A stretch of DNA of 64,000 bases, from contig NZ_VKAC01000003.1 of NCBI RefSeq assembly GCF_008041935.1, forward strand, positions 1 to 64,000, written 5' to 3'. This DNA comes from Quadrisphaera setariae. Lineage in GTDB: Bacteria > Actinomycetota > Actinomycetes > Actinomycetales > Quadrisphaeraceae. Shown piece by piece: positions 29,202 through 46,209 of this stretch. Both the position numbers and the translations under genes were made by a program. Below the pieces are notes generated by a model, which worked only from the letters and a program-made list of their open reading frames with translations, was not told where the DNA came from and ran no database searches. Each line of letters begins with the position of its first letter. The stretch's first letter is position 1.

Positions 29202-29834
29202 GTGGAACGTTCCCGATCTGCTGTCCAGGCCGTGGTGTTCGACATCGGCGGTGTGCTGTCCGCCCCTGAGGGCGCCGTCCCCCAGGTCGCCGAGGCGCTC
29301 GGCCTCCCCGTCGACGCGGTGGGCCCCGCGTACTGGGGGCCGCGAGAGGCCTACGACCGCGGTGGCGCCCTGGCCGACTACTGGCGGGCCGTGGGCGAGG
29401 CGCTCGGTCTGGACCTCGTCGGTGCGCGCGCCGCCGAGCTGGACGACCTCGACGCCCGTCGCTGGGGCGCCCTCGCCCCCCGCTCCGCCGACCTGCTCGC
29501 CGAGGTCTCGCAGGTGGCGGCCAGGGGAGCTGTCAGGTTGGCGGTGCTGTCCAACGCCCCCGCGTCGCTGGCCGGCGTGGTGAGGGCGTCGGAGTGGTCG
29601 GAGCCCTTCGAGGCGCTGCTGTTCTCCGCCGAGCTGCGCGCCGCCAAGCCCGGACCGGCCGTCTACGCCGCCGTCGAGCAGGCGCTCGACCTGCCCGGTG
29701 ACCAGCTCGCCTTCTTCGACGACAGGCCGGTCAACGTCGAGGCGGCGCGGGCCCGCGGCTGGCGCGCGCACCTGTGGACCGGCGCCGACGAGGCGCGCGC
29801 CCAGCTGGTGCGGCTGGGAGTGCTCGATGGCTGA
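29202..29834 (+). CDS. HAD-superfamily phosphatase
   Basis: A 210-residue haloacid-dehalogenase-like hydrolase. Motif I is FDIGGVL, in which the second catalytic Asp is replaced by Gly, as in several HAD-IA members. Motif II is VLSNAP, motif III Lys is in RAAKPGP, and motif IV is AFFDDRPVN. It is likely a small phosphatase. It overlaps the lacI gene by 8 bp. Its first codons contain the GGAACGTTCC operator, and the same operator controls the downstream Ugp-like importer. This suggests it dephosphorylates an imported organophosphate or its product. Confidence 0.85.
   Translation: MERSRSAVQAVVFDIGGVLSAPEGAVPQVAEALGLPVDAVGPAYWGPREAYDRGGALADYWRAVGEALGLDLVGARAAELDDLDARRWGALAPRSADLLAEVSQVAARGAVRLAVLSNAPASLAGVVRASEWSEPFEALLFSAELRAAKPGPAVYAAVEQALDLPGDQLAFFDDRPVNVEAARARGWRAHLWTGADEARAQLVRLGVLDG
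29204..29213. promoter_or_regulatory. LacI operator GGAACGTTCC (copy 1)
   Basis: A perfect 10-bp palindrome inside codons 1-4 of the HAD gene, just downstream of its predicted transcription start. It matches the cores of two more copies at 30962 and 30983, so the LacI protein encoded in this operon is the likely ligand. Confidence 0.8.
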
Positions 29835-30885
29835 CCGGCAGGCCGAGGGGCGGGGCGAGGTCGAGCGCGCCTCGGCCAGGCCGGCGACCATCCTCGACGT
29901 CGCGGCGCGGGCCGGGGTCTCCAAGTCGGTGGTGTCCCGGGTGCTCACCCAGGCCCCGGGCGTGGCGGCGGCGACGCGCGAACGCGTGCTGCACGCCGCC
30001 GGCGAGCTCGGCTACGTGCCCAACACCATGGCGCAGGCGATGGTCGCCCGGCGCACAGGAGCGCTCGGCGCCTTCGTGCGCGACGCCTCCACCCCGTTCT
30101 ACGGCCACCTGCTCACGCTCATGCAGGACCGCGCCGCCGAGCTCGGCTACCGCGTGGTGACCGCCACCGGGTCGGGGCGCTTCTCCGTGGCCGACGAGCG
30201 TCGGGCCCTCGACGTCATGACCGGGCTGCGGGTGGAGGGGCTGGTCATCTGCAGCGGCCTGCTCCCTGAGCGGGACGTCGAGGAGGTGGCCGCCAAGGTG
30301 CCGACCGTGGTGGCCGGCCGGCCGCTCGTCAGCGACGCCTGCGGCAGCGTCTTCTGCGACGAGGCGGGTGGCGGCCGGGGCGTCGCGGAGCACGTGCACG
30401 CGCTCGGGCACCGCCGCGTGGCGGTGCTCGTCCACTCCCCGGACCTGTCCCTCACGCTCTCTCCTCGCAGTCGTGCGGCGGCCGACCACCTCACAGAGCT
30501 CGGTGCGGACGTGGTGCGCCTGCCGGTGCACGACTTCTGGCGGACCACCCACGAGGACGTCGACGCCGTGGTCGCGGCCGCGCTCGACGCCGGCGCCACG
30601 GCGCTCGTGCTGCCCTCGGACCGGTTGGCCCTGCGAGCCCTCGAGGCGCTGCGCGTGCGCGGCCTGGAGGCCCCCGGTGACCTGTCGGTGACCGGGTACG
30701 ACGGCTTCGGGGAGCTGGCCAGCCCGTTCCTCGGGCTCACCACGTGGCGCCAGCCGCTGCCCACCATCGCGCGGATGGCCGTCGACTCCCTCGTCGGTCT
30801 CGTGCAGGGGCGGGTCGACGGCCGCGGCGCCACCGCCCTGGCCGGCGAGCTGGTGGTCGGGCGCACCGCGTCGACCCCCGCCTGA
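29827..30885 (+). CDS. LacI-family transcriptional regulator
   Basis: A 352-residue regulator with a helix-turn-helix and hinge (about 20-70: TILDVAARAGVSKSVVSRVLTQAPGVAAATRERVLHAAGELGYVPN) and a periplasmic-binding-protein-like sensor domain (about 75-340, with TALVLPSDRLALRALEALR and SVTGYDGFGELAS). It overlaps the HAD gene by 8 bp and precedes the ABC importer by 91 bp. GAACGTTC-type palindromes in front of both transcription units mark its regulon. The inducer is presumably the imported compound or its breakdown product. Confidence 0.93.
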   Translation: MADRQAEGRGEVERASARPATILDVAARAGVSKSVVSRVLTQAPGVAAATRERVLHAAGELGYVPNTMAQAMVARRTGALGAFVRDASTPFYGHLLTLMQDRAAELGYRVVTATGSGRFSVADERRALDVMTGLRVEGLVICSGLLPERDVEEVAAKVPTVVAGRPLVSDACGSVFCDEAGGGRGVAEHVHALGHRRVAVLVHSPDLSLTLSPRSRAAADHLTELGADVVRLPVHDFWRTTHEDVDAVVAAALDAGATALVLPSDRLALRALEALRVRGLEAPGDLSVTGYDGFGELASPFLGLTTWRQPLPTIARMAVDSLVGLVQGRVDGRGATALAGELVVGRTASTPA

Positions 30886-30939
30886 TCTCGCCCGCACCCG
30901 GCTCGTCCGCCACCTGACACCAGCCGTTCACCCGATCTC

Positions 30940-30973
30940 TTGACGAGGGACATCTGGCACTGGGAACGTTCCC
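30940..30973 (+). promoter_or_regulatory. promoter -35 and LacI operator (copy 2)
   Basis: TTGACG at 30940-30945 is a good -35 box. GGGAACGTTCCC (30962-30973) follows at the position where the -10 region should be, so repressor binding would occlude the promoter. Confidence 0.7.
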
Positions 30974-30976
30974 TGC

Positions 30977-31864
30977 ATGACAGGGAACGTTCCCTTCACT
31001 TGCCCAGGACGCCGGTCAGGACCAGCGCTCGTCGCGCCAGCGCTGGTGCTCCTGCTCGTCTTCGCCTACTGGCCGGTGCTGCGCAGCGCCTGGCTCAGCC
31101 TCCACGGGTCCGACCTCCTGGGCCGTCCCACGCGCTTCGTCGGCCTCGACAACGTCGCGCAGCTGGTGCTCGACCCCGCCCTGCGCTCCGTGCTCCTCAC
31201 CACCGTCGTCATGGCCGCGGCCTCCACGGCGCTCGCCACCTCGGCCGCGGTGCTCGCGGCCCTCCTGCTGCGCCGAGCCGCCGCGCGCGCCCGCGGCGCG
31301 GTCTCCCTCGTCCTGTCGCTGCCCTTCGCCTACTCCGCAGCCGCAGCCTCGGCCACCTTCGCCGGGCTGCTGGCGCCCTCCAGCGGCATCGCCGACCGCC
31401 TCCTCGCCGCGGCCGGGGTGAGCGGACCGGGCTGGCTCACCGAACCCGCCTGGGCCGTGGCCAGCGTCTCGGTCACCACCGCCTGGTACGAGTTCGGCTT
31501 CGCCTTCCTCGTCGTGCTCGCGGCCGTCAGCCAGCTCGACCCGGCCCCGCTGGAGGCCGCAGCGCTCGACGGCGCGGGGGAGTGGCGCAGCAACCTGGCG
31601 ATCGTCCTTCCGGCGCTGCGGCCGAGCATCCTCTTCGTGGTGGTCACGCAGACCATCTCCGGGTTGCAGGTCTTCACGCAGGTGGCCGTGCTCACCGGCG
31701 GCGGACCGGGCAGCTCCACGCACACGCTGGTCTACGAGCTCTACCAGCGCGCCTTCGGCGGCGGCCTGCCCCAGTACGGCGTCGCCTCCGCGCTGGGGCT
31801 GCTGCTGCTCGTGCTGGTCGGGCTGGTCAGCGCCGCGCAGATGCGCCTGGGCAGGGAGCGCTGA
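30977..31864 (+). CDS. ABC transporter permease, UgpA/MalF-like
   Basis: A 295-residue permease with six membrane segments and the EAA-type loop EAAALDGAGEWRSNLAIVLPALRP (about 193-216) that contacts the ATPase. It belongs to the carbohydrate/glycerol-phosphate importer family. ATG 30977 lies between the two operator copies. The stop overlaps the next permease start (TGATG). No ATPase gene is in the operon, so a shared MsmK/UgpC-type ATPase encoded elsewhere is expected. Confidence 0.9.
   Translation: MTGNVPFTCPGRRSGPALVAPALVLLLVFAYWPVLRSAWLSLHGSDLLGRPTRFVGLDNVAQLVLDPALRSVLLTTVVMAAASTALATSAAVLAALLLRRAAARARGAVSLVLSLPFAYSAAAASATFAGLLAPSSGIADRLLAAAGVSGPGWLTEPAWAVASVSVTTAWYEFGFAFLVVLAAVSQLDPAPLEAAALDGAGEWRSNLAIVLPALRPSILFVVVTQTISGLQVFTQVAVLTGGGPGSSTHTLVYELYQRAFGGGLPQYGVASALGLLLLVLVGLVSAAQMRLGRER
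30983..30994. promoter_or_regulatory. LacI operator GGGAACGTTCCC (copy 3)
   Basis: A second perfect 12-bp copy starts exactly 21 bp after the first, two helical turns, so two dimers would bind on the same face. It lies inside the first codons of the permease gene and encodes Gly-Asn-Val-Pro. Confidence 0.8.
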
Positions 31865-32712
31865 TGACCGGCCCCTCGACGTCACGCGCCCTCCTGCGGC
31901 CCCGGCCGCTCGACTCCGCCCTGCGGTGGACGGGCCTGGCGGTGCTCGTCGTCGTCGTCGCGGGTCCGGTGTACCTGACCGTCGCCACCGCGCTCCTCAC
32001 GCCGGCCGACATCGCCGCTGGTCGCCTGCTGCCCGACCCGCGCCACCTCACGCTGGCCAACGTCCGCGAGGCGCTGGCGAGCATCCCGCTGGGCCGGCAG
32101 TACCTCACCAGCGTGGCCGTCACCGCGATCCAGGCCACCTGCCAGGTGGTGCTCGGTGCGATGGCCGCCTACGCCCTGGTCTTCCCGGCCTGGAAGGGCC
32201 GCCGCCTCGTCTTCGCGCTGCTCATCGGCACCCTGGCCATCCCTGGCGAGACCACGGTGCTGCCCAACTACGAGCTGGTGTCCGGGCTGGGCCTGCGCGA
32301 CACCGTCATCGCCGTCGCCCTGCCCTTCCTGGCCGCCGCCTACCCGGTCTTCCTGCTGCGCCAGGCGTTCTCCGACCTGCCCCGGGAGGTGTGGGAGGCG
32401 GCCTCGCTCGACGGCGCCGGCCACCTGCGCACCCTCGTCAGCGTCATCCTCCCGATGGCGCGACCGCAGCTGGTCACCGCCGCGCTCTGGTCGGCGCTGG
32501 CCGCCTGGAACGGCTACTTCTGGCCGCTGCTGATCACCGACTCGCCGCAGAACCGCACCGTGCAGGTCGGGCTCGCCCAGCTCGTGGCCAGCGAGTCCTC
32601 CACCCCCGGCGTCGTCTACGCCGGAACGCTCCTCGTCCTCGCACCGACGCTGCTGCTGGTGCTCCTCGGCCAGCGCTTCCTCGTCAACGGCCTGGCCGCC
32701 CGCTCCTCCTGA
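31864..32712 (+). CDS. ABC transporter permease, UgpE/MalG-like
   Basis: A 282-residue permease with six membrane segments and EAASLDGAGHLRTLVSVILPMARP (about 178-200) as the EAA loop. The preceding GTLAIPGETTVLPNYELVSGLGLRDT is characteristic of the UgpE/MalG side of the heterodimer. It is coupled to the first permease and is followed 69 bp later by the binding protein. Confidence 0.92.
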   Translation: MTGPSTSRALLRPRPLDSALRWTGLAVLVVVVAGPVYLTVATALLTPADIAAGRLLPDPRHLTLANVREALASIPLGRQYLTSVAVTAIQATCQVVLGAMAAYALVFPAWKGRRLVFALLIGTLAIPGETTVLPNYELVSGLGLRDTVIAVALPFLAAAYPVFLLRQAFSDLPREVWEAASLDGAGHLRTLVSVILPMARPQLVTAALWSALAAWNGYFWPLLITDSPQNRTVQVGLAQLVASESSTPGVVYAGTLLVLAPTLLLVLLGQRFLVNGLAARSS

Positions 32713-32781
32713 GCTCCCCGCGCACCCAGCGCGTCCCCCGCACGTCTCCGCACCCCACACCACCGCCCTTGGAGGTCCGTC

Positions 32782-34179
32782 ATGCCCGCTCCCTCGCGTC
32801 GCAGCCCCCGCCCTCGCCGTCGTGCCGTCGTGGTGGCCATCGCCCTCGGCGCCACGGCGCTGACCGGTGCCTGCAGCAGCAGCGCCAGCACGCCCGGCGC
32901 CGTCAGCACCAGCGCCCTCGCCTCCGCCGGGCCGGTGACGATCACGCTCTGGCACGGCTTGGGCGGAGCCCCCGGAGACGCCTTCGCGAAGGTCGTGAGC
33001 GAGTTCAACGCCACCAACCCGCAGCACATCACCGTGGACGCCGTCTTCCAGGGCTCCTACGACGACGCCCTCACCAAGTACACGGCAGCCGCCCGCGACG
33101 GCAGCACCCCCGACGTCATGCTCACCAACGACATCTCCACCGGCTTCATGCACGACCTCGGCCAGACCGTGCCCGCCGGCGACCTCGCGAAGGCCAACCC
33201 CGGCAGCCTCGACCTCGAGCACCTCTCCCCGGCGGCTCGCAACTACTACACCGCCGACGGCACGCTCCTCGCCGTCCCCTTCAACACCTCGGTGCCGCTC
33301 CTCTACGTCAACACCGACCTGCTCGCGAAGGCAGGCGTCGACACCTCCACCCTCGGCACGACGGACGGCCTGGACGCAGCCGCCCGCAAGGTCGCTGCTG
33401 CGCTGCCAGGGGTCAAGGGCTTCGCGCTGCCCCAGGCCGGCGGCTGGTGGTACGAGCAGATGACCGCCGCGGCCGGCGAGCCGTACTGCACCCCCGACAA
33501 CGGGCGCAGCGGCGGCGGTGCCACGGCGCTCTCGCTCACCGGCCCCGCGCAGCAGCAGGCCTTCGCCACCGTGGCCGGCCTCGCGCGCGACGGCGTCTCC
33601 CTGAGCACCGGCTCCGACGACAACGCCCTGCTCAACGCCTTCGCCTCCGGCCAGGCGGCCATGATGTTCAACTCCTCCGGCGCGTACAGCGGTCTGGTGA
33701 AGGCCGGCATGAAGGACGTCACCGCCGTGCCGCTGCCGCTCAGCGGCCCCGCGGCCTCCAGCGGGCCGCTCATCGGCGGTGCGGCCCTGTGGGTCAGCGG
33801 CCAGGGGCACTCCGAGGCGCAGCAGGCGGCCGCGTGGACCTTCATCAGCTACCTCAGCTCCGCGGAGGTCCAGGAGGAGTTCTCCCAGGCCTCCGGCTAC
33901 GTGCCCGTCAACACGCAGGTCGCCTCCAGCAGCACCGAGCAGAGCTACCTCGCGGCCAACCCGGTCGCGGCCGTCGCCGCGAAGGAGCTGGCGGAGGCCC
34001 CGGTGGTCCCCGCGACCGCCGGCTGCCTCACCGGCGCGCTGCCCACCGTGCGCAAGACCGTCGTCGCGGACCTCTCCCAGGCCATCAACGGCCAGGGCGA
34101 CCTGGCCGCCGCGCTCGCCAAGGCCGAGGCCGACGCCACGAGGAACATCACCGACTACCGCGCCCAGGCGGGGAAGTGA
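32782..34179 (+). CDS. ABC solute-binding lipoprotein, UgpB-like
   Basis: A 465-residue binding protein. The N-terminal basic region and hydrophobic stretch end in the lipobox LTGACSSS (Cys about 31), so it is membrane-anchored outside the cell. The mature part begins ITLWHGLGGAPGDAFAKVVSEFNATNPQ and contains PFNTSVPLLYVNTDLLAKAG, both typical of the glycerol-3-phosphate-binding UgpB group. Two Cys (in PYCTPDN and TAGCLTG) may form a disulphide. ATG 32782 follows TTGGAGG. Substrate is probably a small organophosphate ester; this rests on resemblance and neighbours. Confidence 0.9.
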   Translation: MPAPSRRSPRPRRRAVVVAIALGATALTGACSSSASTPGAVSTSALASAGPVTITLWHGLGGAPGDAFAKVVSEFNATNPQHITVDAVFQGSYDDALTKYTAAARDGSTPDVMLTNDISTGFMHDLGQTVPAGDLAKANPGSLDLEHLSPAARNYYTADGTLLAVPFNTSVPLLYVNTDLLAKAGVDTSTLGTTDGLDAAARKVAAALPGVKGFALPQAGGWWYEQMTAAAGEPYCTPDNGRSGGGATALSLTGPAQQQAFATVAGLARDGVSLSTGSDDNALLNAFASGQAAMMFNSSGAYSGLVKAGMKDVTAVPLPLSGPAASSGPLIGGAALWVSGQGHSEAQQAAAWTFISYLSSAEVQEEFSQASGYVPVNTQVASSSTEQSYLAANPVAAVAAKELAEAPVVPATAGCLTGALPTVRKTVVADLSQAINGQGDLAAALAKAEADATRNITDYRAQAGK

Positions 34180-34187
34180 GCCCGGAC

Positions 34188-34868
34188 ATGACGACCACGA
34201 CGACGACGCCGGCCATCGCGACCGAGCACCTGCGCTGGAGCCGGTCGGAGGGCGACCCGTACCGCTACGGCGTCTACCTCATGCCCGATCCGCGCACCGC
34301 CCTCGCCGTCACCACCGCCACCACGGCGGTGCGCGCCCAGTACGGGCTGCTGTCCGCCGGGGCGTTCCCGCCGCACGTGACGCTGGTGGGCAGCCAGCAC
34401 TGGGGCCTCGACGAGGCGCGGGCCGTCGAGGTGCTCGACGCCGCGCTGTCCTCCCGGCCCGCCGTGCGCGTGCACAGCAGCGGGGTGCAGCGCCTGGGGG
34501 CGGGGTGGGTCGTCGACTGGCACCTGCTGCCGGACGGTTCGCCCAACCCCGAGCTCGTGGCGCTCGCGGACGCCGTGGAGGCTGCCGTCACGCCGCTGCG
34601 CCGGCCGGCCTCCAGCCCGCCCAGCAACGACGTGCACCACGAGACCTGGCACGCGCACCTCTCGCTCGCCTCCCACGACCTGCACGACCGCGCCGACCTG
34701 CGCGAGGAGGTGGGCGATTTCCTGCGGGGCCTGCCGCTCGACCTGCCGGGGGCGGTGGTGGCGGATCGCGTGGCGCTGTACCGCACCGCCAGTGACGACT
34801 GGTCGGGCCGCTGGTGGCGCTCCCTCACCTGGGAGCACCTGCGCACCTGGCGCCTGGCCCGCCCGTGA
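34188..34868 (+). CDS. 2H phosphoesterase (2'-5' RNA ligase family)
   Basis: A 226-residue two-histidine phosphoesterase. The paired motifs are HVT (63-65, PPHVTLVG) and HLS (157-159, WHAHLSLAS), the hallmark of 2',5'-RNA ligase/cyclic phosphodiesterase enzymes that open cyclic phosphates or cleave 2'-5' linkages. It lies 8 bp after the binding-protein gene in the LacI-regulated importer operon. In this setting it more likely hydrolyses an imported cyclic or diester phosphate than acts on RNA. That role is inferred. Confidence 0.85.
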   Translation: MTTTTTTPAIATEHLRWSRSEGDPYRYGVYLMPDPRTALAVTTATTAVRAQYGLLSAGAFPPHVTLVGSQHWGLDEARAVEVLDAALSSRPAVRVHSSGVQRLGAGWVVDWHLLPDGSPNPELVALADAVEAAVTPLRRPASSPPSNDVHHETWHAHLSLASHDLHDRADLREEVGDFLRGLPLDLPGAVVADRVALYRTASDDWSGRWWRSLTWEHLRTWRLARP

Positions 34869-34986: not shown

Positions 34987-36201
34987 GTGAGCACCCGGAG
35001 CGCGGCTGCCGCCGTCGTCCTCGTGGCCCTGCTGACGACGGGGTGCGGGGCCCGCGGCCGTGGTCCGGTCGAGGAGCCGCTGCCGTCCTCGACCGTGGCG
35101 CCGGTGCCGGCGTCCGCGGGGGAGTGGGAGGCGATGAGCGCGGCTCCCCTGGAGCCGCGCGGCGGGGCGCTGACCGCGTGCACGGGTGAGCGGCTGCTGC
35201 TGCTCGGCGGGCACCGGAGCGACGAGCAGCAGCCGCCCTGCCCGCCTGGCGCCAGCTGCGCCGGCGTCGAGCCGACCCGGTTCGACGACGGCGCCGCGTG
35301 GGACCCGGCCACCGACGCCTGGACCCACCTCGTGGATCCGACCGGCGCCGAGACCGGCCTGTCGCAGGACGGCGACGGCGCGGTGTGGTCGGGGGAGTCC
35401 CTGTTCACCCGCTCGCAGCGGTTCACGCCGGACCTGGCTGCGGGCACGCTCACCCGTGCCCCCTTCGACGCCGGACCCGCGCTCGTCTACTCCGACCCCG
35501 TCTGGACCGGTGACCGCCTGGTCGCGGTCGGATGGGACTGCGGGGGCGCAGCCTCCGGCGTGGACGGGCAGCTCGTGGCGCAGGTCGTCGACCCTGCCAC
35601 CGGGACCGCGACGGCGGTGCCCTGGCCGTACGACCCGCCGGGCGCCGAGAGCGTGCGCACCGCGTGGACGGGGAGCGAGGTGGTCGCGCTCGTCGCCACG
35701 GACGGCGCCTCGGAGACCGGTGAGGGCACCTGGCGCGCGGTCGCCTTCGACCCGGCCACCTCGACCTGGCGCTCGGTCGCCGACCGTGCCGACGGGCCCC
35801 GCGAGCTCGCGTGGGACGGGCGGCGCCTCCTGCTCCAGGACCAGGACCGGGTCGGCGCCCTCGACGTCACCACGGGGGAGAGCACCGACGTGGTGCAGCT
35901 GCCCGACCGCACGAGCGGCGGGCTGGAGCTCAGCGCCTCGGGGCGCGTGCTGCTCCACACCTGGCGCGGTGCCTACCTGCTCGACGACGGCGACGGCGAC
36001 GCCGGCTGGCTGCGGGTGCCCGACCCGCCGGGAGCGGACCGGACCACGGCGAGCACGGTCGCCTGGGCCGGCGACGACCTCGTCGTCTGGGGCGGCACCC
36101 AGGCGTACGAGGAGGACGGGGGAGCCACCCGCAGCAGCGCTGACGGCTGGGTCTGGCGAGACCTGGGAGCCTGGCCGTCCACGTCCAGGAGCGGCTCGTG
36201 A
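34987..36201 (+). CDS. lipoprotein with beta-propeller-like repeats
   Basis: A 404-residue protein starting at GTG 34987 with a short signal peptide and lipobox LTTGCGARG (Cys about 20). The mature part contains Kelch-like repeats of the pattern hydrophobic-Gly-Gly ... Trp-x-x-Leu (RLLLLGGHR, AWDPATDAWTHL, VAFDPATSTWRSV, DDLVVWGGTQ), which suggests an extracytoplasmic beta-propeller. The upstream part of the open frame (back to 34792) is not protein-like. Function unknown; cotranscription with the importer operon is possible. Confidence 0.75.
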   Translation: MSTRSAAAAVVLVALLTTGCGARGRGPVEEPLPSSTVAPVPASAGEWEAMSAAPLEPRGGALTACTGERLLLLGGHRSDEQQPPCPPGASCAGVEPTRFDDGAAWDPATDAWTHLVDPTGAETGLSQDGDGAVWSGESLFTRSQRFTPDLAAGTLTRAPFDAGPALVYSDPVWTGDRLVAVGWDCGGAASGVDGQLVAQVVDPATGTATAVPWPYDPPGAESVRTAWTGSEVVALVATDGASETGEGTWRAVAFDPATSTWRSVADRADGPRELAWDGRRLLLQDQDRVGALDVTTGESTDVVQLPDRTSGGLELSASGRVLLHTWRGAYLLDDGDGDAGWLRVPDPPGADRTTASTVAWAGDDLVVWGGTQAYEEDGGATRSSADGWVWRDLGAWPSTSRSGS

Positions 36202-36275
36202 GCGGCTCCTGGCCCGGGCCCTCCCGCGAGTCGCGGGTCGGTCAGCGACGGCCGGTGCGCATGCTGGACGCCCAG

Positions 36276-36329
36276 CACGCCGACGACCACGCCGACGACC
36301 ACGCCGCCGACCACGCCGCCGACCACGCC
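36276..36329. repeat. 4.5 copies of a 12-bp repeat (CACGCCGACGAC)
   Basis: Two copies of CACGCCGACGAC, two of CACGCCGCCGAC and a half copy lie in the gap before the gene at 36340. They end 10 bp before its ATG and overlap the region where a ribosome binding site and leader would sit. Confidence 0.8.
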
Positions 36330-36339
36330 AGGAGCCCGC

Positions 36340-37620
36340 ATGAGCACTCCGGAGCCTGCGGCGCCCCAGCCCGCGGCGCGGCAGCGGGTCGCAGCGGTCG
36401 ACGTCGTGCGGGGGCTGCTCCTGGTGGTGATCGTGGTCAGCGGGAGCCTGGTGGAGCCGCCCGCCTGGTTCGACCACGCCCCGTGGGCCGGCGCGCACCC
36501 CCTGGACCTCGTCTTCCCGTCCTTCGTCCTGCTGATGGGCGTGGGCCTGGGGTTCGCCTGCTCCCGGGGCGTGCAGCTGTCGCGACTGCCCCGGCGGGTG
36601 CTGGTGCTGCTGGCTGCCGGGCTGGTCTACAACGCCGCGGTGCAGTGGGCCCGCCTGGGGACCGTCGACCTCGACCAGCTGCGGTGGACCGGGGTCCTGC
36701 AGGTGTTCGCGCTGGTGACGCTGGTCATCAGCCTGGTCCACCTCGTGGTGCGGGGGTGGGTGGCGTGGACCGCCGTGGCGCTGGCCTTCGCGGCCGGCCA
36801 CACCTGGCTGCTCGCCCGCTGGGCCGCCGCGTGCCCGGGCGGTGAGCTGGCTCCCGCGTGCAACCCCTCCCTGGGTCTCGACACCGCCCTGCTGCCGGCG
36901 CGGCACCTGTACTGGCAGATGGACGCCGGGCACGATCCCGAGGGCCTCGTCGCGGTGCTGGGCGCCTGCGTCACCGCGGCCGCCGGAGTGGCTGCGGCCC
37001 ACGCCCTGCGCGGTCGTCGGGCCACCCCCGACGACCAGGCCCCGGGGGAACCCCCCGCCGCCGGGCCGGTCGGTGGGGGACTGGTCGGCCGGGGACTGGC
37101 CGCGGCGGGACTGGTGGGGTCGGGAGTGGTGCCCGCTGCGGCGCGGCTGGTGGTGGTCGCCGCGGTGCTGGCGGGGGCCGGGCGGGCCGCCTCCCTGTGG
37201 GTGCCACCCGTGAAGCGGCTGTGGACGGCTCCCTTCGGCCTGTCCGTCGCCGCACTCGTCATCGCGCTGGTCGCGGTGGTGCACCTCCTCGTCGACGCGC
37301 CGTGGGTCGAGCAACGGCGAGCGCGAGGTCCAGCGGCGGCGGCCGTGGCGGCGGGCGCCCTCCGAGCGCTCCGCGAGCCGTTCGTGGCGCTGGGGCGCAA
37401 CAGCCTGCTGGTCTACGTGGGCAGCGAGGTGCTCGCCGCCGTCCTCCTGCTGCGCCCGCTGCGCGCCGACCCGGCGATCGAGCCCAGCCACGCCCAGTCG
37501 CTGGCGGACCGCCTGGCGTGGCTGGGGAGCCCGCAGATCGGGCTCAGCGCCGCGCTGCTGGCGGCCTGGTGGCTGCTCGCAGTCCTGCTGCACCGGCGCC
37601 GCTGGTACCTGCGCGCCTGA
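36340..37620 (+). CDS. membrane acyltransferase-like protein (DUF1624/HGSNAT type)
   Basis: A 426-residue integral membrane protein with about ten segments. The N-terminus RVAAVDVVRGLLLVVIVVSGSL, HPLDLVFPSFVLLMGVGL and the late FVALGRNSLLVYVGSEVLA are typical of the heparan-alpha-glucosaminide N-acetyltransferase-like family, which moves acyl groups across membranes in eukaryotes and is of unknown role in bacteria. A Gly/Pro-rich loop (about 228-260) separates the two halves. ATG 36340 follows CAGGAGCC. Confidence 0.8.
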   Translation: MSTPEPAAPQPAARQRVAAVDVVRGLLLVVIVVSGSLVEPPAWFDHAPWAGAHPLDLVFPSFVLLMGVGLGFACSRGVQLSRLPRRVLVLLAAGLVYNAAVQWARLGTVDLDQLRWTGVLQVFALVTLVISLVHLVVRGWVAWTAVALAFAAGHTWLLARWAAACPGGELAPACNPSLGLDTALLPARHLYWQMDAGHDPEGLVAVLGACVTAAAGVAAAHALRGRRATPDDQAPGEPPAAGPVGGGLVGRGLAAAGLVGSGVVPAAARLVVVAAVLAGAGRAASLWVPPVKRLWTAPFGLSVAALVIALVAVVHLLVDAPWVEQRRARGPAAAAVAAGALRALREPFVALGRNSLLVYVGSEVLAAVLLLRPLRADPAIEPSHAQSLADRLAWLGSPQIGLSAALLAAWWLLAVLLHRRRWYLRA

Positions 37621-41771: not shown

Positions 41772-42698
41772 TCAGCCCTTGAACGCGCCGTCCATGATCC
41801 CGGACACCATCTGGCGGCCGAAGAACGCGAACAGCACGAGCAGGGGCACGGTCACGAGGAACGAGCCGGCCATCGCCAGGCCCAGGTCGACCGTGAGGTT
41901 GGACTGCAGGGCCTTGATGGCGATCTGCGCGGTGTAGACCTCCGGCGACTTCAGCACGATGAACGGCCACAGGAAGTCGTTCCAGGCGTTGACGAAGCCG
42001 AGCAGCCCCAGCACGAACGCCGCGGGCCTCACGATGGGGAAGGCGATCTTCGAGAAGATCTGCCAGCTGCTGGCGCCGTCCACGCGGGCGGCCTGCAGCA
42101 GCTGGTCGTCGATGGTGGCCGAGATGTGCTGGCGCATCCAGAAGATGCCGAAGGCGCTGACGAGCCCGGGGACGACGAGCGCCTGCAGCGAGTCGACCCA
42201 CCCCAGCTGCGCGATGATCATGTACTGCGGGATGACCGACAGCGACGCCGGCACGGTCATCGTCAGCACCAGCAGCAGGAACAGCGCGTCGCGCCCCTTG
42301 AAGGCCAGCTTGGCGAAGGCGAACCCCGCCAGCGCGCACAGGAACGCCTGCCCGACGGCGATCAGCCCGGCCACCACGAGGCTGTTGAACAGCGACCGCA
42401 GGAAGGGGATGGTGTCGAAGACCAGCTGCGTCACCACGAGCAGCCGCCCACCGGGCACGACGCGCGGGGGCATCTCGGCGGCGGCCTCGGTGCCGGCGGA
42501 GGCCACCACGAACATCCAGTACAGCGGGAACAGGCACGCCAGCACGGCGAGGGTGAGGACGGCGTAGGTGTACCAGCGCACCCGCCCCACCTGGCGCCCG
42601 CGCGGCACCCGGTCCAGGCGCGGCTCCCGTCGTCGTCCTGGGCCCTTCGACCGCCCGGCGGCCGACGAGCGGTCCGGAGCGTCCACGAGCTGGGCCAT
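41772..42698 (-). CDS. sugar ABC transporter permease, MalG-like
   Basis: A 308-residue permease with a basic N-terminus (1-42), six membrane segments and the EAA loop QAARVDGASSWQIFSKIAFPIVRP (about 200-223). ATG 42698 overlaps the stop of the MalF-like gene by one base. No ATPase is encoded in the operon. The product forms half of the membrane channel. Confidence 0.92.
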   Translation of the reverse strand: MAQLVDAPDRSSAAGRSKGPGRRREPRLDRVPRGRQVGRVRWYTYAVLTLAVLACLFPLYWMFVVASAGTEAAAEMPPRVVPGGRLLVVTQLVFDTIPFLRSLFNSLVVAGLIAVGQAFLCALAGFAFAKLAFKGRDALFLLLVLTMTVPASLSVIPQYMIIAQLGWVDSLQALVVPGLVSAFGIFWMRQHISATIDDQLLQAARVDGASSWQIFSKIAFPIVRPAAFVLGLLGFVNAWNDFLWPFIVLKSPEVYTAQIAIKALQSNLTVDLGLAMAGSFLVTVPLLVLFAFFGRQMVSGIMDGAFKG

Positions 42699-43651
42699 CA
42701 GGCACGCCTCCCCACACGGCTGGACAGCAGGTAGTTGATCAGCGCGACCACCACGATGATGGCGAACAGGGCCACGCCGATCGCGGAGCCGTAGCCGAAG
42801 TTGAAGACCCCGAAGCCCTGCTCGAACTGGAACAGGGAGAGGGTCTGGCACTGCCGCTCGGCGCCGCAGGTGGTGCCCGAGGTGGGCTGCAGCAGCAGCG
42901 GCTCGGTGAAGATCTGCAGCCCGCCGATGGTCGAGGTGATGACCGTGAAGATGATCACCGGGCGCAGCGAGGGCAGCGTGATGTTGAAGAACTGCTTGAC
43001 CTCGCCAGCGCCGTCCACGGAGGCGGCCTCGTACAGGTCGCGCGGCACCGCCTGCAGCGACGCCAGGTACAGCAGCGTCGTGTACCCGAACCAGCGCCAG
43101 GTCACCATGACGGCGATGAGCACGTGGCTGCCCAGCACGGTGTTCTTGAAGTCGACGTGCTCGAAGCCGAGCAGGCCGATGAAGAAGTTCAGCAGGCCGT
43201 AGTCGCGGTCGAAGAGCTGCGCGAAGACGATCGTCGTCGCCGCCACCGAGGTGATGTACGGGACGAGCATCGACATCCGCCAGAAGCTGGCGAACCGCAG
43301 CCGGGCCTTGTTGAGCACCTGCGCCAGCACGAGCGCGATGACCAGCTGCGGGACCGTCGACAGGATCCAGATGCTGAAGGTGTTGCGCAGCGCGTTCCAG
43401 AACCTCGGGTCCTCGCCGAGCCGGACGAAGTTGTCCAGCCCCACGAACGTGCGGTCGCCGATGGGGTTCCAGTCGAACAGCGCCACCACGAAGGTGAACA
43501 CCAGCGGGAACAGCCCGAAGACGGCGAAGAGCAGGTAGAACGGCGCGACGTAGCCGTAGGGCGCCAGGCGCTCCCAGCGGCTCTCGACGGGCTTGGTGGC
43601 GGTCGTCCCGCGGGTGGCGCGGCCGGCCTGCGGGGTGAGGGTGGCGCTCAC
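42698..43651 (-). CDS. sugar ABC transporter permease, MalF-like
   Basis: A 317-residue permease with six membrane segments and the EAA loop EAASVDGAGEVKQFFNITLPSLRP (about 207-230). An extracytoplasmic insertion with two Cys (SGTTCGAERQCQ) between segments 5 and 6 may be disulphide-linked. GTG 43651 overlaps the stop of the binding-protein gene (GTGA). It pairs with the MalG-like permease. Confidence 0.92.
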   Translation of the reverse strand: MSATLTPQAGRATRGTTATKPVESRWERLAPYGYVAPFYLLFAVFGLFPLVFTFVVALFDWNPIGDRTFVGLDNFVRLGEDPRFWNALRNTFSIWILSTVPQLVIALVLAQVLNKARLRFASFWRMSMLVPYITSVAATTIVFAQLFDRDYGLLNFFIGLLGFEHVDFKNTVLGSHVLIAVMVTWRWFGYTTLLYLASLQAVPRDLYEAASVDGAGEVKQFFNITLPSLRPVIIFTVITSTIGGLQIFTEPLLLQPTSGTTCGAERQCQTLSLFQFEQGFGVFNFGYGSAIGVALFAIIVVVALINYLLSSRVGRRA

Positions 43652-44958
43652 AGGTCACCCACCACGATCTCGACGTTGCGCACGCCCTTGGCCCACGCCT
43701 GCGCCGGGTCGGCGGCGCTGAGCTCGACCGCCTTGATGGCGTTCTGCAGCTCGGTGCCGATCTCGGCCGTGTACCGGCCGACGGGGAACGGGGTGATGTC
43801 GAGCACCGCCTTCGTGAAGATCGCGCCGGTGGGTGCGTTCGAGAAGTAGGGGTCGGTGAAGTCCGCCAGCTCGGGCTCGGAGTAGTTCTCCGGGGTGGTG
43901 GGCAGCGAGCCGGCGTCGACGAAGTGCTGCAGCTGGGACGCCGGCGACTGCACGCTGCGCACGTACTCCCAGGCGGCCTCCTTGCGCTCGGCCGCGGCGG
44001 GGATGGCGAGGTAGCTGCCGCCCCAGTTGCCGATGCCGTTGGGGATGGTGGCGAGGTCCCACTGGCCCTCCAGGTCGGGCGCCTGGGACTTGATGGTGCC
44101 GAGCATCCAGCTGGGGGAGCAGGTGACGGCGAACGCGCCGCGGCCGATGCCCGCGTTCCAGGCGCTGCCGAAGGAGTCGACCCGGGCGGAGATGCCCGCC
44201 GCCAGCGCGTCGAGGGACCAGTCGAACGCCTGCCTGACCTGCGGGTTGGTGTAGGCGTACCCGCCGTCGGCGTCGTAGAACTGCTCGCTGACCTGCCCGA
44301 GCGCCTGGTAGAAGACCGACGTCGCGGCGTTGTCCACGAACGCGTTCCCCGTGGCCTCGGTGTAGCGGCGGCCCGTCTCGATGAAGCTCGGCCAGTCCGG
44401 CCACAGCGCGCTGACCTCGTCGCGGTCGGTGGGCAGGCCCGCCGCGGCGAAGAGGTCCTTGCGGTAGGCGACGGCCAGGCCGCCGACGTCGGTGGGGATG
44501 CCGATCACCTGGCCGCCCCGGGTGGTCGCCTGGGCGATGACCCAGTCGAGGTAGGGCGCGCCGACGTCGTCGCCGCCGAGGCGCCGGTAGTCGACGAAGT
44601 TGTCGGGGGACAGGGCGAACTTGGGCAGGTCGGCGGCCTGCACGAGCGCGAGGTCGGGCACCTTGCCGCCGGCGATGGCGGTGGTGAGCGCCTGCGCGGT
44701 CTCCTGGGAGCTGCCGACCTCGGTGAGCTTGATGGTGACGCCGGGGTTGGCGCTCATGTACCGCTCGACGTCGGCCTTCTGCCCGATGCCCGTGAAGGAC
44801 CAGAACGTGAAGTCCCGCGGGCCGGTGGGCGCCGAGGGTGAGCACGCGCTGGTGGCGGCCGCCGCTCCGAGGCCGGCGAGCGCGTACGAGAGGACCTGCC
44901 GGCGCGACGGCGCGCGCCGTCCGGGGGAGTGGGCGAGGGGTGGGGCGGTGGTTCTCAC
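43648..44958 (-). CDS. sugar ABC transporter binding lipoprotein (Tat/lipobox)
   Basis: A 436-residue binding protein. The N-terminus has SRRQVLSYALAGLG, a twin-arginine-like signal, ending in the lipobox ATSACSPS (Cys about 39). The mature part is of the family-1 solute-binding type (RDFTFWSFTGIGQKADVERYMSANPGVTIKLTEVG; GIPTDVGGLAVAYRKDLFAAAG). GTG 44958 follows AGGGGAG. It is the first gene of the operon and is divergent from a LacI gene across an AT-rich operator region. The bound sugar is unknown. Confidence 0.9.
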   Translation of the reverse strand: MRTTAPPLAHSPGRRAPSRRQVLSYALAGLGAAAATSACSPSAPTGPRDFTFWSFTGIGQKADVERYMSANPGVTIKLTEVGSSQETAQALTTAIAGGKVPDLALVQAADLPKFALSPDNFVDYRRLGGDDVGAPYLDWVIAQATTRGGQVIGIPTDVGGLAVAYRKDLFAAAGLPTDRDEVSALWPDWPSFIETGRRYTEATGNAFVDNAATSVFYQALGQVSEQFYDADGGYAYTNPQVRQAFDWSLDALAAGISARVDSFGSAWNAGIGRGAFAVTCSPSWMLGTIKSQAPDLEGQWDLATIPNGIGNWGGSYLAIPAAAERKEAAWEYVRSVQSPASQLQHFVDAGSLPTTPENYSEPELADFTDPYFSNAPTGAIFTKAVLDITPFPVGRYTAEIGTELQNAIKAVELSAADPAQAWAKGVRNVEIVVGDL

Positions 44959-45083
44959 GGGGCTCCCCTGTCGTCAGGGGCACCTCGAGCGCCGTGCGGG
45001 TGGGGCGGGGCCGGTGGGCCGCGTCGTCGTCGCCGGGCCGGGTGCTCGTCGTCGAGCGGTCTTGATCTGCTGGTCAAGGACGT

Positions 45084-45112
45084 GTATCGATATAGGTTCT
45101 GTATCGATATAG
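45084..45112. promoter_or_regulatory. AT-rich double operator GTATCGATATAG
   Basis: GTATCGATATAG occurs at 45084-45095 and again at 45101-45112, 17 bp apart; each holds the palindrome TATCGATA. It is strikingly AT-rich for this genome and lies between the divergent ABC operon and lacI gene. TTGATC (45062-45067) is 17 nt upstream of the first copy, so the operator likely covers a promoter. Confidence 0.75.
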
Positions 45113-45186
45113 AACCGCACGCCCGGCCCGTCGTCAAGGCGCGGACGGGGGTGTCGAGGACGACGACGACAGGGGAGGCTCTGCAG

Positions 45187-46209
45187 GTGGTCACCATCCG
45201 CGACGTCGCCGCAGCAGCTGGTGTGTCGCCCATGTCCGTGTCCAACGCGCTCTCGGGGACCCGGCCGGTCTCGGAGGTCACGCGCGTCAAGGTGATGTCC
45301 GCGGTCGAGCGGCTCGGCTACCAGGTGAACACCGCCGCCCGCAGCCTCCGGCAGGGCCGCACCGGGGTCGTCGGCGTGGTGGTGCCGACCCTCGAGAGCC
45401 AGTACTACGCCCAGCTGTGCGGCCGCCTCGTGCGCCGCTTCGCCGAGGCCGGGCTGTCCGCCGTGGTCGAGGACACCGGCGCCACGTGGGAGCGGCAGGC
45501 ATCGGTCTTCCGCGACAGCCGCGTGGCCGCCTACGACGGCCTCGTGCTCTCCCCGATCGGCCTGTCCGAGGCGGAGCTGCGCAGCTTCGCCGGCCGCCTG
45601 CCGCTCGTCGTCCTCGGGGAGCAGCAGCTGCACCGCAGCGTGGACAGGGTCGGCATGGCCAACGCCGCCGGCGCCGCCGCAGCCACCCGCGTGCTGCTCG
45701 CGCGCGGCTGCCGCAGGCTCGCCGTGGTCGGCGCACCGCCGCTCGACCAGCTCGGCGAGCGCGCCGAGACCTCGCTGACCGAGGGGGCCGCCTTCGTGGA
45801 GCGCGCCCGCGGCTTCCTGGCCGCCACGCGCGAGGTGCCCGGCGTCACCACCACCTCGCTCTACACCGGGTCCACCCTCGCCGACGGCCGGCGGGCCGGG
45901 CACGACCTGCTCGCCGCCCACCCCGACGTCGACGGCGTGCTGTGCGCCACGGACACCCTCGCCTTCGGCGTGCTGCGGGCGCTGGCCGACCGGGGCGTGC
46001 GCGTCCCCGACGACGTGCGCGTCATCGGCTTCGACGACGTCGAGGAGGCCAGCTTCAGCGTGCCGTCGCTGTCCAGCGTCGACCCCGGCCACGAGGCCAT
46101 GGCCGCGGCCGCGGTGGAGCTGCTCGTGCGCCGCATCACCGACCCGGGCGCCGCCCCGCGCGACGTGGTGGGCGAGGCCCGCGTGGTCGAGCGGCAGTCC
46201 ACGGCCTGA
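45187..46209 (+). CDS. LacI-family transcriptional regulator
   Basis: A 340-residue regulator with helix-turn-helix and hinge (VTIRDVAAAAGVSPMSVSNALSGTRPVSEVTRVKVMSAVERLGYQVN, about 2-47) and a sugar-binding-type sensor (DGVLCATDTLAFGVLRALADRGVRVPDDVRVIGFDDVEEASFSVPSLSSV). GTG 45187 follows AGGGGAGG. It faces the sugar ABC/PhyH operon and is its probable repressor, acting through the TATCGATA operators. Confidence 0.93.
   Translation: MVTIRDVAAAAGVSPMSVSNALSGTRPVSEVTRVKVMSAVERLGYQVNTAARSLRQGRTGVVGVVVPTLESQYYAQLCGRLVRRFAEAGLSAVVEDTGATWERQASVFRDSRVAAYDGLVLSPIGLSEAELRSFAGRLPLVVLGEQQLHRSVDRVGMANAAGAAAATRVLLARGCRRLAVVGAPPLDQLGERAETSLTEGAAFVERARGFLAATREVPGVTTTSLYTGSTLADGRRAGHDLLAAHPDVDGVLCATDTLAFGVLRALADRGVRVPDDVRVIGFDDVEEASFSVPSLSSVDPGHEAMAAAAVELLVRRITDPGAAPRDVVGEARVVERQSTA

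What the first reader, a model, noticed from the sequence alone, without database searches (positions are those of the whole stretch)
29202..34868. LacI-controlled import and cleavage system for a cyclic or diester organophosphate
One regulon has a UgpB-like binding protein, two permeases, a two-histidine (2H) phosphoesterase and a HAD phosphatase, with no ATPase. 2H enzymes of this family open cyclic phosphates, and HAD enzymes remove the remaining phosphate. The set suggests scavenging of a compound such as a glycerol or inositol cyclic phosphate or a glycerophosphodiester. I know of no characterised system with this exact composition.
Basis: inference. Interest (0 to 1): 0.75.

Follow-up and report, generated by a model that had tools for sequence, protein, structure and literature searches.

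The report
Importer and cutter for sugar phosphodiesters
An actinobacterium carries a six-gene, apparently mobile cassette that probably imports a sugar-containing phosphodiester whole, cuts it inside the cell and removes the phosphate, resembling in its parts the routes that two plant-associated bacteria use to eat such compounds.

Summary
HAD hydrolase, LacI, two UgpA/E-like permeases, a UgpB-like lipoprotein and a 2H phosphoesterase lie at 29202-34868, all on the + strand, with no local ATPase (one MalK-type ATPase elsewhere in the genome). I found 12 more cassettes in Actinobacteria, one on a conjugative plasmid. HAD is found in 10 of 13, LacI in 12, and the operator core GGAACGTTCC in 12. 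The binding proteins keep UgpB's phosphate-contact residues (three positions in 13 of 13, the fourth in 12) but have lost one of its two clamp tryptophans, which points to a phosphodiester rather than a plain sugar or glycerol phosphate. Variant cassettes add galE under the same operator, a secreted GDPD, or phosphate/Mg homeostasis genes (PIT, MgtC). Five of 13 have a PHO-box heptamer upstream of permA. Best explanation: substrate- and perhaps phosphate-controlled import of a sugar phosphodiester, cytoplasmic cleavage by the 2H enzyme, then dephosphorylation. The parts match Agrobacterium agrocinopine catabolism, and the enzyme class matches Xanthomonas xanthosan catabolism (XanP, 2025). The exact substrate, and whether it is cyclic, is untested. 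New variant of a known kind.

The parts
29202..29834 (+). HAD-IA phosphatase (210 aa), GTG start at the edge of an operator; FDxG motif I
   Evidence: found in 10 of 13 cassettes
29203..29214 (.). LacI operator TGGAACGTTCCC, encoding the first HAD codons (M-E-R-S)
   Evidence: same embedded site in L008, L021, L029, L038
29827..30885 (+). LacI-family repressor (352 aa)
   Evidence: found in 12 of 13 cassettes
30926..30932 (+). PHO-box-like heptamer GTTCACC (degenerate tandem TGACACC-AGCC-GTTCACC at 30915-30932)
   Evidence: same place (-51 to -54 from permA) in 5 of 13 cassettes against 0.22 expected
30962..30973 (.). LacI operator 1, exact GGGAACGTTCCC, centre -10 from permA start
30977..31864 (+). 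UgpA-like ABC permease (295 aa)
30983..30994 (.). LacI operator 2, exact, inside permA codons 3-6 (M-T-G-N-V-P), centre +12
31864..32712 (+). UgpE-like ABC permease (282 aa)
32782..34179 (+). UgpB-like substrate-binding lipoprotein (465 aa) with UgpB phosphate-contact residues Y93, S170, S298, Y373 and D117, G333, R424; of the clamp, W222 kept and the Trp188 position lost (A219)
34188..34868 (+). 2H phosphoesterase (226 aa), HVT 63-65 and HLS 157-159, no signal peptide seen by eye

Best explanation
The cassette imports a small sugar-containing phosphodiester intact through a UgpB-type ABC importer powered by a shared MalK-type ATPase. In the cytoplasm the 2H enzyme hydrolyses the diester to a sugar phosphate (for example a hexose 1-phosphate), and the HAD enzyme releases phosphate. 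LacI represses importer and HAD through GGGAACGTTCCC operators until a breakdown product appears, and PhoP may add phosphate control in part of the family. Shown by computation: gene content, motifs, pocket residues, operator-like sites, conservation. Inferred: the substrate class, the order of the reactions, LacI's effector, PhoP binding, and the ATPase partner.
For: (1) The unit is conserved in distant Actinobacteria: the 9 other HAD cassettes at 39-75% identity gene by gene, the 3 without HAD at 31-47%, with the same operator core in 12 of 13. (2) Pocket: of UgpB's four phosphate contacts (Tyr64, Ser143, Ser266, Tyr342, from PMC12718374 passages), the first three are kept in 13 of 13 and Tyr342 in 12 of 13 (Phe in L058). 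Asp for Glu88, Gly303, Arg393 and Trp191 are kept in 13 of 13; Trp188 is lost in 13 of 13. Two other CUT1-type binding proteins used as controls keep 0 of 4. The paper says the Tyr/Ser set is kept in GPC- and dinucleotide-binding proteins but not in glucose binders, and ties the Trp pair to glycerol phosphates. (3) The 2H model (pLDDT 86.8) matches Arabidopsis cyclic phosphodiesterase and LigT. (4) HAD profile hits include chains named alpha-D-glucose 1-phosphate phosphatase YihX; 2b0c, labelled putative phosphatase and the same as YihX over the stretch printed, shares the FDxG motif. (5) In the Paenarthrobacter plasmid an operator precedes 2H-orf-galE, and galE passes its equivalog cut-off (445 bits, cut-off 262). 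(6) A GDPD-domain protein with an apparent signal peptide follows the 2H gene in L039. (7) PIT in L058 and MgtC in L014, L015 and L022 lie beside the same operators. (8) PHO-box heptamer, 5 of 13.
Against: No cassette names its substrate. galE and GDPD each occur in one cassette. HAD similarity to YihX is weak (48-49 bits), and a haloacid dehalogenase (54) and epoxide hydrolase 2 (51) score higher. After UgpB the binding-protein model is next closest to a plain-sugar binder, the cyclic maltosyl-maltose protein 7bvt (Foldseek rank 5), then to the Thermus dinucleotide binder (rank 6), so sugars and nucleotides remain possible. The nearest 2H structures are a cyclic nucleotide phosphodiesterase and LigT. 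L039 has no LacI hit and no operator. In L015 and L022 the second 2H motif is HLG and HLA.
Confidence: 0.5

Rival explanations
1. The substrate is a glycerophosphodiester or a teichoic-acid repeat (glycosylglycerol phosphate), and the 2H enzyme acts as a cytoplasmic replacement of GDPD.
For: UgpB-type pocket with the glycerol-contact positions Asp/Gly/Arg kept; a GDPD-domain protein and a PhoD lie beside 2H genes in L039 and L037, enzyme types tied to teichoic acid breakdown (GlpQ: PMC7086022, search listing only; PhoD: recalled); PHO-box heptamer.
Against: The Trp188 half of the glycerol clamp is lost in 13 of 13; the PhoD neighbour is next to a 2H gene without this importer; clustering of called ORFs in 12 fetched cassettes' or orphan loci, one weak-hit locus and the window showed no further conserved glycerol gene (rough gene calls, L058 not included); galE would need a galactosylated form.
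Confidence: 0.22
2. The substrate is an RNA dinucleotide or 2',3'-cyclic nucleotide: 2H opens the cyclic phosphate and HAD is a nucleotidase.
For: Nearest 2H structures are a cyclic nucleotide phosphodiesterase and LigT; the Thermus uridylyl-guanosine-binding protein is among the nearest structures of the binding protein (rank 6).
Against: UgpB matches the binding-protein profile about twice as well by sequence (226 against 112 bits); the Thermus chain aligns Thr at the Ser266 position and nothing at the Trp191 position that the cassettes keep; galE does not fit.
Confidence: 0.13
3. The importer takes up an ordinary disaccharide and the 2H and HAD genes are a coincidental or repair function.
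For: LacI control and CUT1-type permeases are typical of sugar importers; a plain-sugar binder (7bvt) is the next structural neighbour after UgpB; the operator resembles common LacI palindromes (recalled).
Against: 13 of 14 genomes keep 2H beside the importer; phosphate-contact residues are kept while two other CUT1-type binding proteins have none; the ORF clustering showed no conserved further enzyme gene.
Confidence: 0.08

Closest known systems
Agrocinopine catabolism (acc genes) of Agrobacterium, PMC4526662 (passages read)
   Same: Repressor, ABC importer, cytoplasmic phosphodiesterase (AccF) and phosphatase (AccG, called putative there) for a sugar phosphodiester; the repressor's effector is the cleavage product
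   Different: I recall AccF as GDPD-like and AccA as a peptide-type binding protein, not 2H or UgpB-like; no sequence comparison was made here
Xanthosan utilisation (XanT, XanP) of Xanthomonas, PMC12807533 (abstract, sections 7, 8, 11 and passages read)
   Same: A 2H phosphoesterase with HxT/S motifs cleaves an imported cyclic galactose phosphodiester to Gal-1-P; a GDPD-derived enzyme makes it
   Different: Uptake by a TonB-dependent transporter, ROK-family regulator; no HAD mentioned in the parts read; sequence of XanP not compared here
Ugp glycerol-3-phosphate / GPC importers (UgpB of E. coli, marine bacteria, M. tuberculosis)
   Same: Nearest family of the binding protein and permeases; phosphate contacts kept
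   Different: Trp188 half of the clamp lost; no own ATPase; diesterase is 2H, not GDPD; LacI control
2H phosphoesterases (plant CPDase, LigT/ThpR)
   Same: Fold and catalytic motifs
   Different: 18-19% identity to the plant structures; encoded with an importer

Membership tests
2H phosphoesterase superfamily | Two HxT/S motifs in a bilobal fold | tested here: met
   Window protein: HVT and HLS, PF13563 over cut-off, fold match. Of 15 2H sequences from 14 loci, HxT in 15 and HLS in 13; HLG in L015 and HLA in L022
UgpB-type phosphate-ester binding proteins | Tyr64/Ser143/Ser266/Tyr342 phosphate contacts | tested here: met
   window 4 of 4; 12 of 13 cassettes 4 of 4, L058 3 of 4; two controls 0 of 4
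UgpB proper (glycerol phosphate specific) | Trp188/Trp191 clamp | tested here: not met
   Trp191 kept, Trp188 lost in 13 of 13; NCBIfam UgpB 168.7 bits, cut-off 411
Xanthosan utilisation (XanP-type) | Orthology of the 2H enzyme to XanP | not tested
   I had no XanP sequence in hand; only the motif types given in the paper were compared
Xanthosan utilisation (XanP-type) | Galactose phosphodiester as substrate | not testable with these tools
   Hint only: galE behind an operator in one cassette of 13
Agrocinopine-type operon | Repressor + ABC importer + phosphodiesterase + phosphatase | tested here: met
   Composition by family met in the window and 9 more cassettes with HAD; likeness of function by family names, not homology, and no activity shown
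PHO regulon of actinobacteria | Two tandem GTTCACC-like 11-bp repeats in the promoter | tested here: inconclusive
   One exact heptamer, other repeat degenerate (3 mismatches in all) in the window; best in L038 (1 mismatch)

The most novel reading that the evidence does not exclude
Actinobacteria carry a mobile catabolic cassette for xanthosan-like (possibly cyclic, galactose-containing) sugar phosphodiesters. In some lineages a secreted GDPD-family protein is encoded with it, so that such compounds form a general currency made and eaten by bacteria well beyond Xanthomonas and Agrobacterium.
Probability: 0.17. Interest if true: 0.85.

Novelty: new variant of a known kind. Interest (0 to 1): 0.6.

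Why it matters
If right, uptake and 2H-type cleavage of sugar phosphodiesters is not confined to two plant-associated genera but is a mobile trait of Actinobacteria. That would point to an unrecognised pool of such compounds. The cassette gives ready tools to find it: a binding protein to fish the ligand, a repressor to sense it and an enzyme to cut it.

Tried and rejected
A phage-defence reading of the 2H protein: no PADLOC or PHROGs match at 0.001; set aside. A trait of the genus: no match in 58 other relatives, including 5 of the same genus and 7 more of the same family; rejected in favour of spread by transfer. An importer without energy source: set aside, a MalK-type ATPase exists. AvrBs2-like synthase in L039: its GDPD protein scores 34.2 bits against the AvrBs2 model (cut-off 1000) and 27.5 against an ordinary GDPD model. 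Two ordinary GDPDs used as controls also score 32.9 and 21.6 against AvrBs2 but prefer the ordinary GDPD model by 134 and 99 bits, so this is a weak hint only. Further conserved genes: clustering of roughly called ORFs from 13 fetched loci and the window gave no seventh family in most loci; MgtC in 3 (L058 was fetched later, L040 has no cassette). Weak 2H hits G595, G275 and G1485 were fetched and dropped: no binding protein, LacI or HAD hit and only distant permease hits in L030 and L031. Seven further weak hits were not examined. Sequence search of the PDB with the 2H profile found no credible relative. A search for MgtC and phosphate control in print gave no paper.
Full report
What is there. 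The span 29202-34868 holds six + strand genes: HAD, LacI, two permeases, a binding lipoprotein and a 2H phosphoesterase. HAD overlaps LacI by 8 bases and permease 1 overlaps permease 2 by one. Exact palindromes GGGAACGTTCCC lie at 30962 and 30983 on either side of the permease start codon, and one with a single change lies over the HAD start. In the whole 4.9-Mb genome seven places match within one mismatch, three of them here, so the regulon looks confined to the cassette. The first codons of HAD (GTG GAA CGT TCC) and codons 3-6 of permease 1 (GGG AAC GTT CCC) are themselves operator. The same embedding, with the permease pair at -10 and +12, occurs in L008, L021, L029 and L038. There is no ATPase in the cassette. 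The genome has one match to the MalK OB-fold family, in an ABC ATPase on contig C10 beside recR- and dnaX-type genes; a FecCD-type permease and a binding protein lie about 4.6 kb further. That it serves this importer is inferred.

Relatives. Searches with the 2H protein or its alignments examined 59 relatives, 394 genomes of the class (38), 394 of one family (46), 297 and 297 of two others (50, 51), 396 of the order (54) and 150 of another family (86), besides one scan of genome contigs (16) and one of plasmids (39). The sets overlap in part, are samples, and in the larger ones only some candidates per genome were scored, so relatives may be missed. Clear relatives were found in 14 genomes or records, the window's own included: G000, G259, G611, G736, G1079, G1387, G1441, G1477, G1507, G1709, Streptomyces sp. 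GQFP (L008), Pseudonocardia alaniniphila (L009), Nonomuraea sp. (L010) and a conjugative Paenarthrobacter plasmid (L014). Thirteen of 14 have the importer beside it. The 9 other HAD cassettes are 39-75% identical gene by gene; L014, L039 and L058 are 31-47%. The exception, L037, has a 2H gene followed by a PhoD-type phosphatase. HAD is found in 10 of 13 (not L014, L039, L058), LacI in 12 of 13 (not L039). GGAACGTTCC is found in 12 of 13: 27 sites in 82,532 bases of cassette, against 1 in 217,476 bases outside and a mean of 0.0 in 30 shuffles of each cassette. The 2H protein has no match in the 58 other relatives, including 5 of the same genus, so the cassette is sporadic and probably mobile. 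Pseudonocardia has two 2H genes in tandem. A tree of the binding proteins splits a HAD clade (10 rows, 96/99) from a clade without HAD (L014, L039, L058; 97/95); the outgroup branch is very long.

What the binding protein tells. By sequence the nearest solved proteins are UgpB (226 bits) and then a Thermus dinucleotide-binding protein (112 bits) (with 12 rows gives the same order). By fold the order is UgpB (Foldseek E 1.8e-27), the cyclic maltosyl-maltose binder 7bvt (2.1e-24, a plain sugar ligand), then the dinucleotide binder (5.5e-24) and GacH. PMC12718374 (passages read) gives UgpB's phosphate contacts as Tyr64, Ser143, Ser266 and Tyr342, its hydroxyl contacts as Glu88, Gly303 and Arg393, and a Trp188/Trp191 clamp on glycerol. 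It reports that the Tyr/Ser set is kept in GPC and dinucleotide binders and not in glucose binders. My alignment shows Tyr64, Ser143, Ser266, Asp for Glu88, Gly303, Arg393 and Trp191 in 13 of 13, Tyr342 in 12 of 13, and Trp188 in none (for 12 rows, for L058). The Thermus chain has Thr, not Ser, at the Ser266 position in my alignment, a small disagreement with the paper. Two other CUT1-type binding proteins of unknown ligand (window 43648-44958 and L037 830-2140) have 0 of 4 phosphate contacts. This argues for a phosphate-bearing ligand larger than glycerol phosphate.

What the enzymes tell. Of 15 2H sequences from the 14 loci, the first motif is HxT in 15 and the second HLS in 13; L015 has HLG and L022 HLA, which weakens the claim that every member is a normal catalyst. 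The window protein's AlphaFold model (pLDDT 86.8) matches plant cyclic phosphodiesterase and LigT. No signal peptide is visible by eye, so it should act in the cytoplasm. HAD keeps Asp14, Ser117, Lys149 and Asp173/174 in 10 of 10. Its motif I is FDxG, like 2b0c (labelled putative phosphatase, the same as the YihX chains over the stretch printed) and 3cnh (DxG) and unlike the FDxD of epoxide hydrolase 2; but all scores are near 50 bits and a dehalogenase scores best.

What the variants tell. On the Paenarthrobacter plasmid an operator precedes 2H-orf76-galE, and galE passes its equivalog cut-off; the window's genome has one GalT-family gene. In L058 the operator lies between divergent permease and PIT phosphate-transporter genes, the latter followed by a PhoU-like DUF47 gene. 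L039 has PIT in the same place without the operator. MgtC lies in L014, L015 and L022, with an operator between it and the permease or just upstream of it. In L039 a 762-aa GDPD-domain protein with an apparent signal peptide follows 2H after about 150 bases on the same strand. The PHO-box heptamer GTTCACC (consensus as in PMC9019756 and PMC7244524, passages) lies 51-54 bases before permease 1 in 5 of 13 cassettes against 0.22 expected; these five are related, so they are not independent. The tandem repeat is near chance in the window as a whole (6 found, 4 expected), and 5 of 13 upstream regions score no better than a fifth or more of random stretches (L015, L022, L028, L039, L058), but L038 has it with one mismatch (0.2% of random 220-mers).

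Mechanism. Most likely: diester in through the ABC importer; 2H cleaves to a sugar phosphate; HAD (or, in the other clade, perhaps the Leloir route with GalE) handles the phosphate or the sugar; the product or substrate lifts LacI; surplus phosphate may be dealt with by PIT or MgtC in some lineages. Substrate class about 0.5; galactose and cyclic forms less. Rivals are teichoic-acid or glycerol diesters, nucleotides and, least, plain sugars.

Comparison. PMC4526662 (passages) describes repressor AccR, importer AccA-E, phosphodiesterase AccF and phosphatase AccG for agrocinopine, with the cleavage product as effector. PMC12807533 (abstract, sections 7, 8, 11 and passages) describes XanP, a 2H phosphoesterase that turns a cyclic galactose phosphodiester into Gal-1-P. 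The present cassette has the first system's composition and the second's enzyme class, with a UgpB-type importer. I saw no paper on this combination in the listings of searches of the held open-access library, which lacks most subscription journals.

Noticed in passing
window 41772-46209: A second CUT1-type ABC importer (permeases 41772-42698 and 42698-43651, binding protein 43648-44958, - strand) with a divergent LacI gene (44974-46209) and no ATPase seen between them; its binding protein lacks the UgpB phosphate contacts.
   Followed up: partly
window, ten places: GTTCACC occurs 10 times in the window, more than in any of 100 shuffles (mean 4, largest 8); meaning unknown.
   Followed up: no
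L037:9725-12978: 2H relative (57-60% identical) followed by a PhoD-like phosphatase and preceded by an AraC-type regulator, without this importer.
   Followed up: partly
L039:6556-8844: 762-aa protein with an apparent signal peptide and a GDPD domain of which only residues 89-221 match Pfam; the rest is unassigned.
   Followed up: partly
L015 and L022, 2H genes: Second catalytic motif is HLG or HLA instead of HLS, in cassettes that also carry MgtC.
   Followed up: no
L062:1-2745: On an Antarctobacter plasmid an ordinary GDPD lies between an ABC ATPase and a LacI gene, perhaps another LacI-type glycerophosphodiester set.
   Followed up: no
window 34990-37620: Just downstream of the cassette, a lipoprotein-like ORF with weak kelch matches below cut-off (34990-36201) and a membrane protein matching HGSNAT/NagX-type acyltransferases (36340-37620); not clustered with any gene of the 13 loci.
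   Followed up: no
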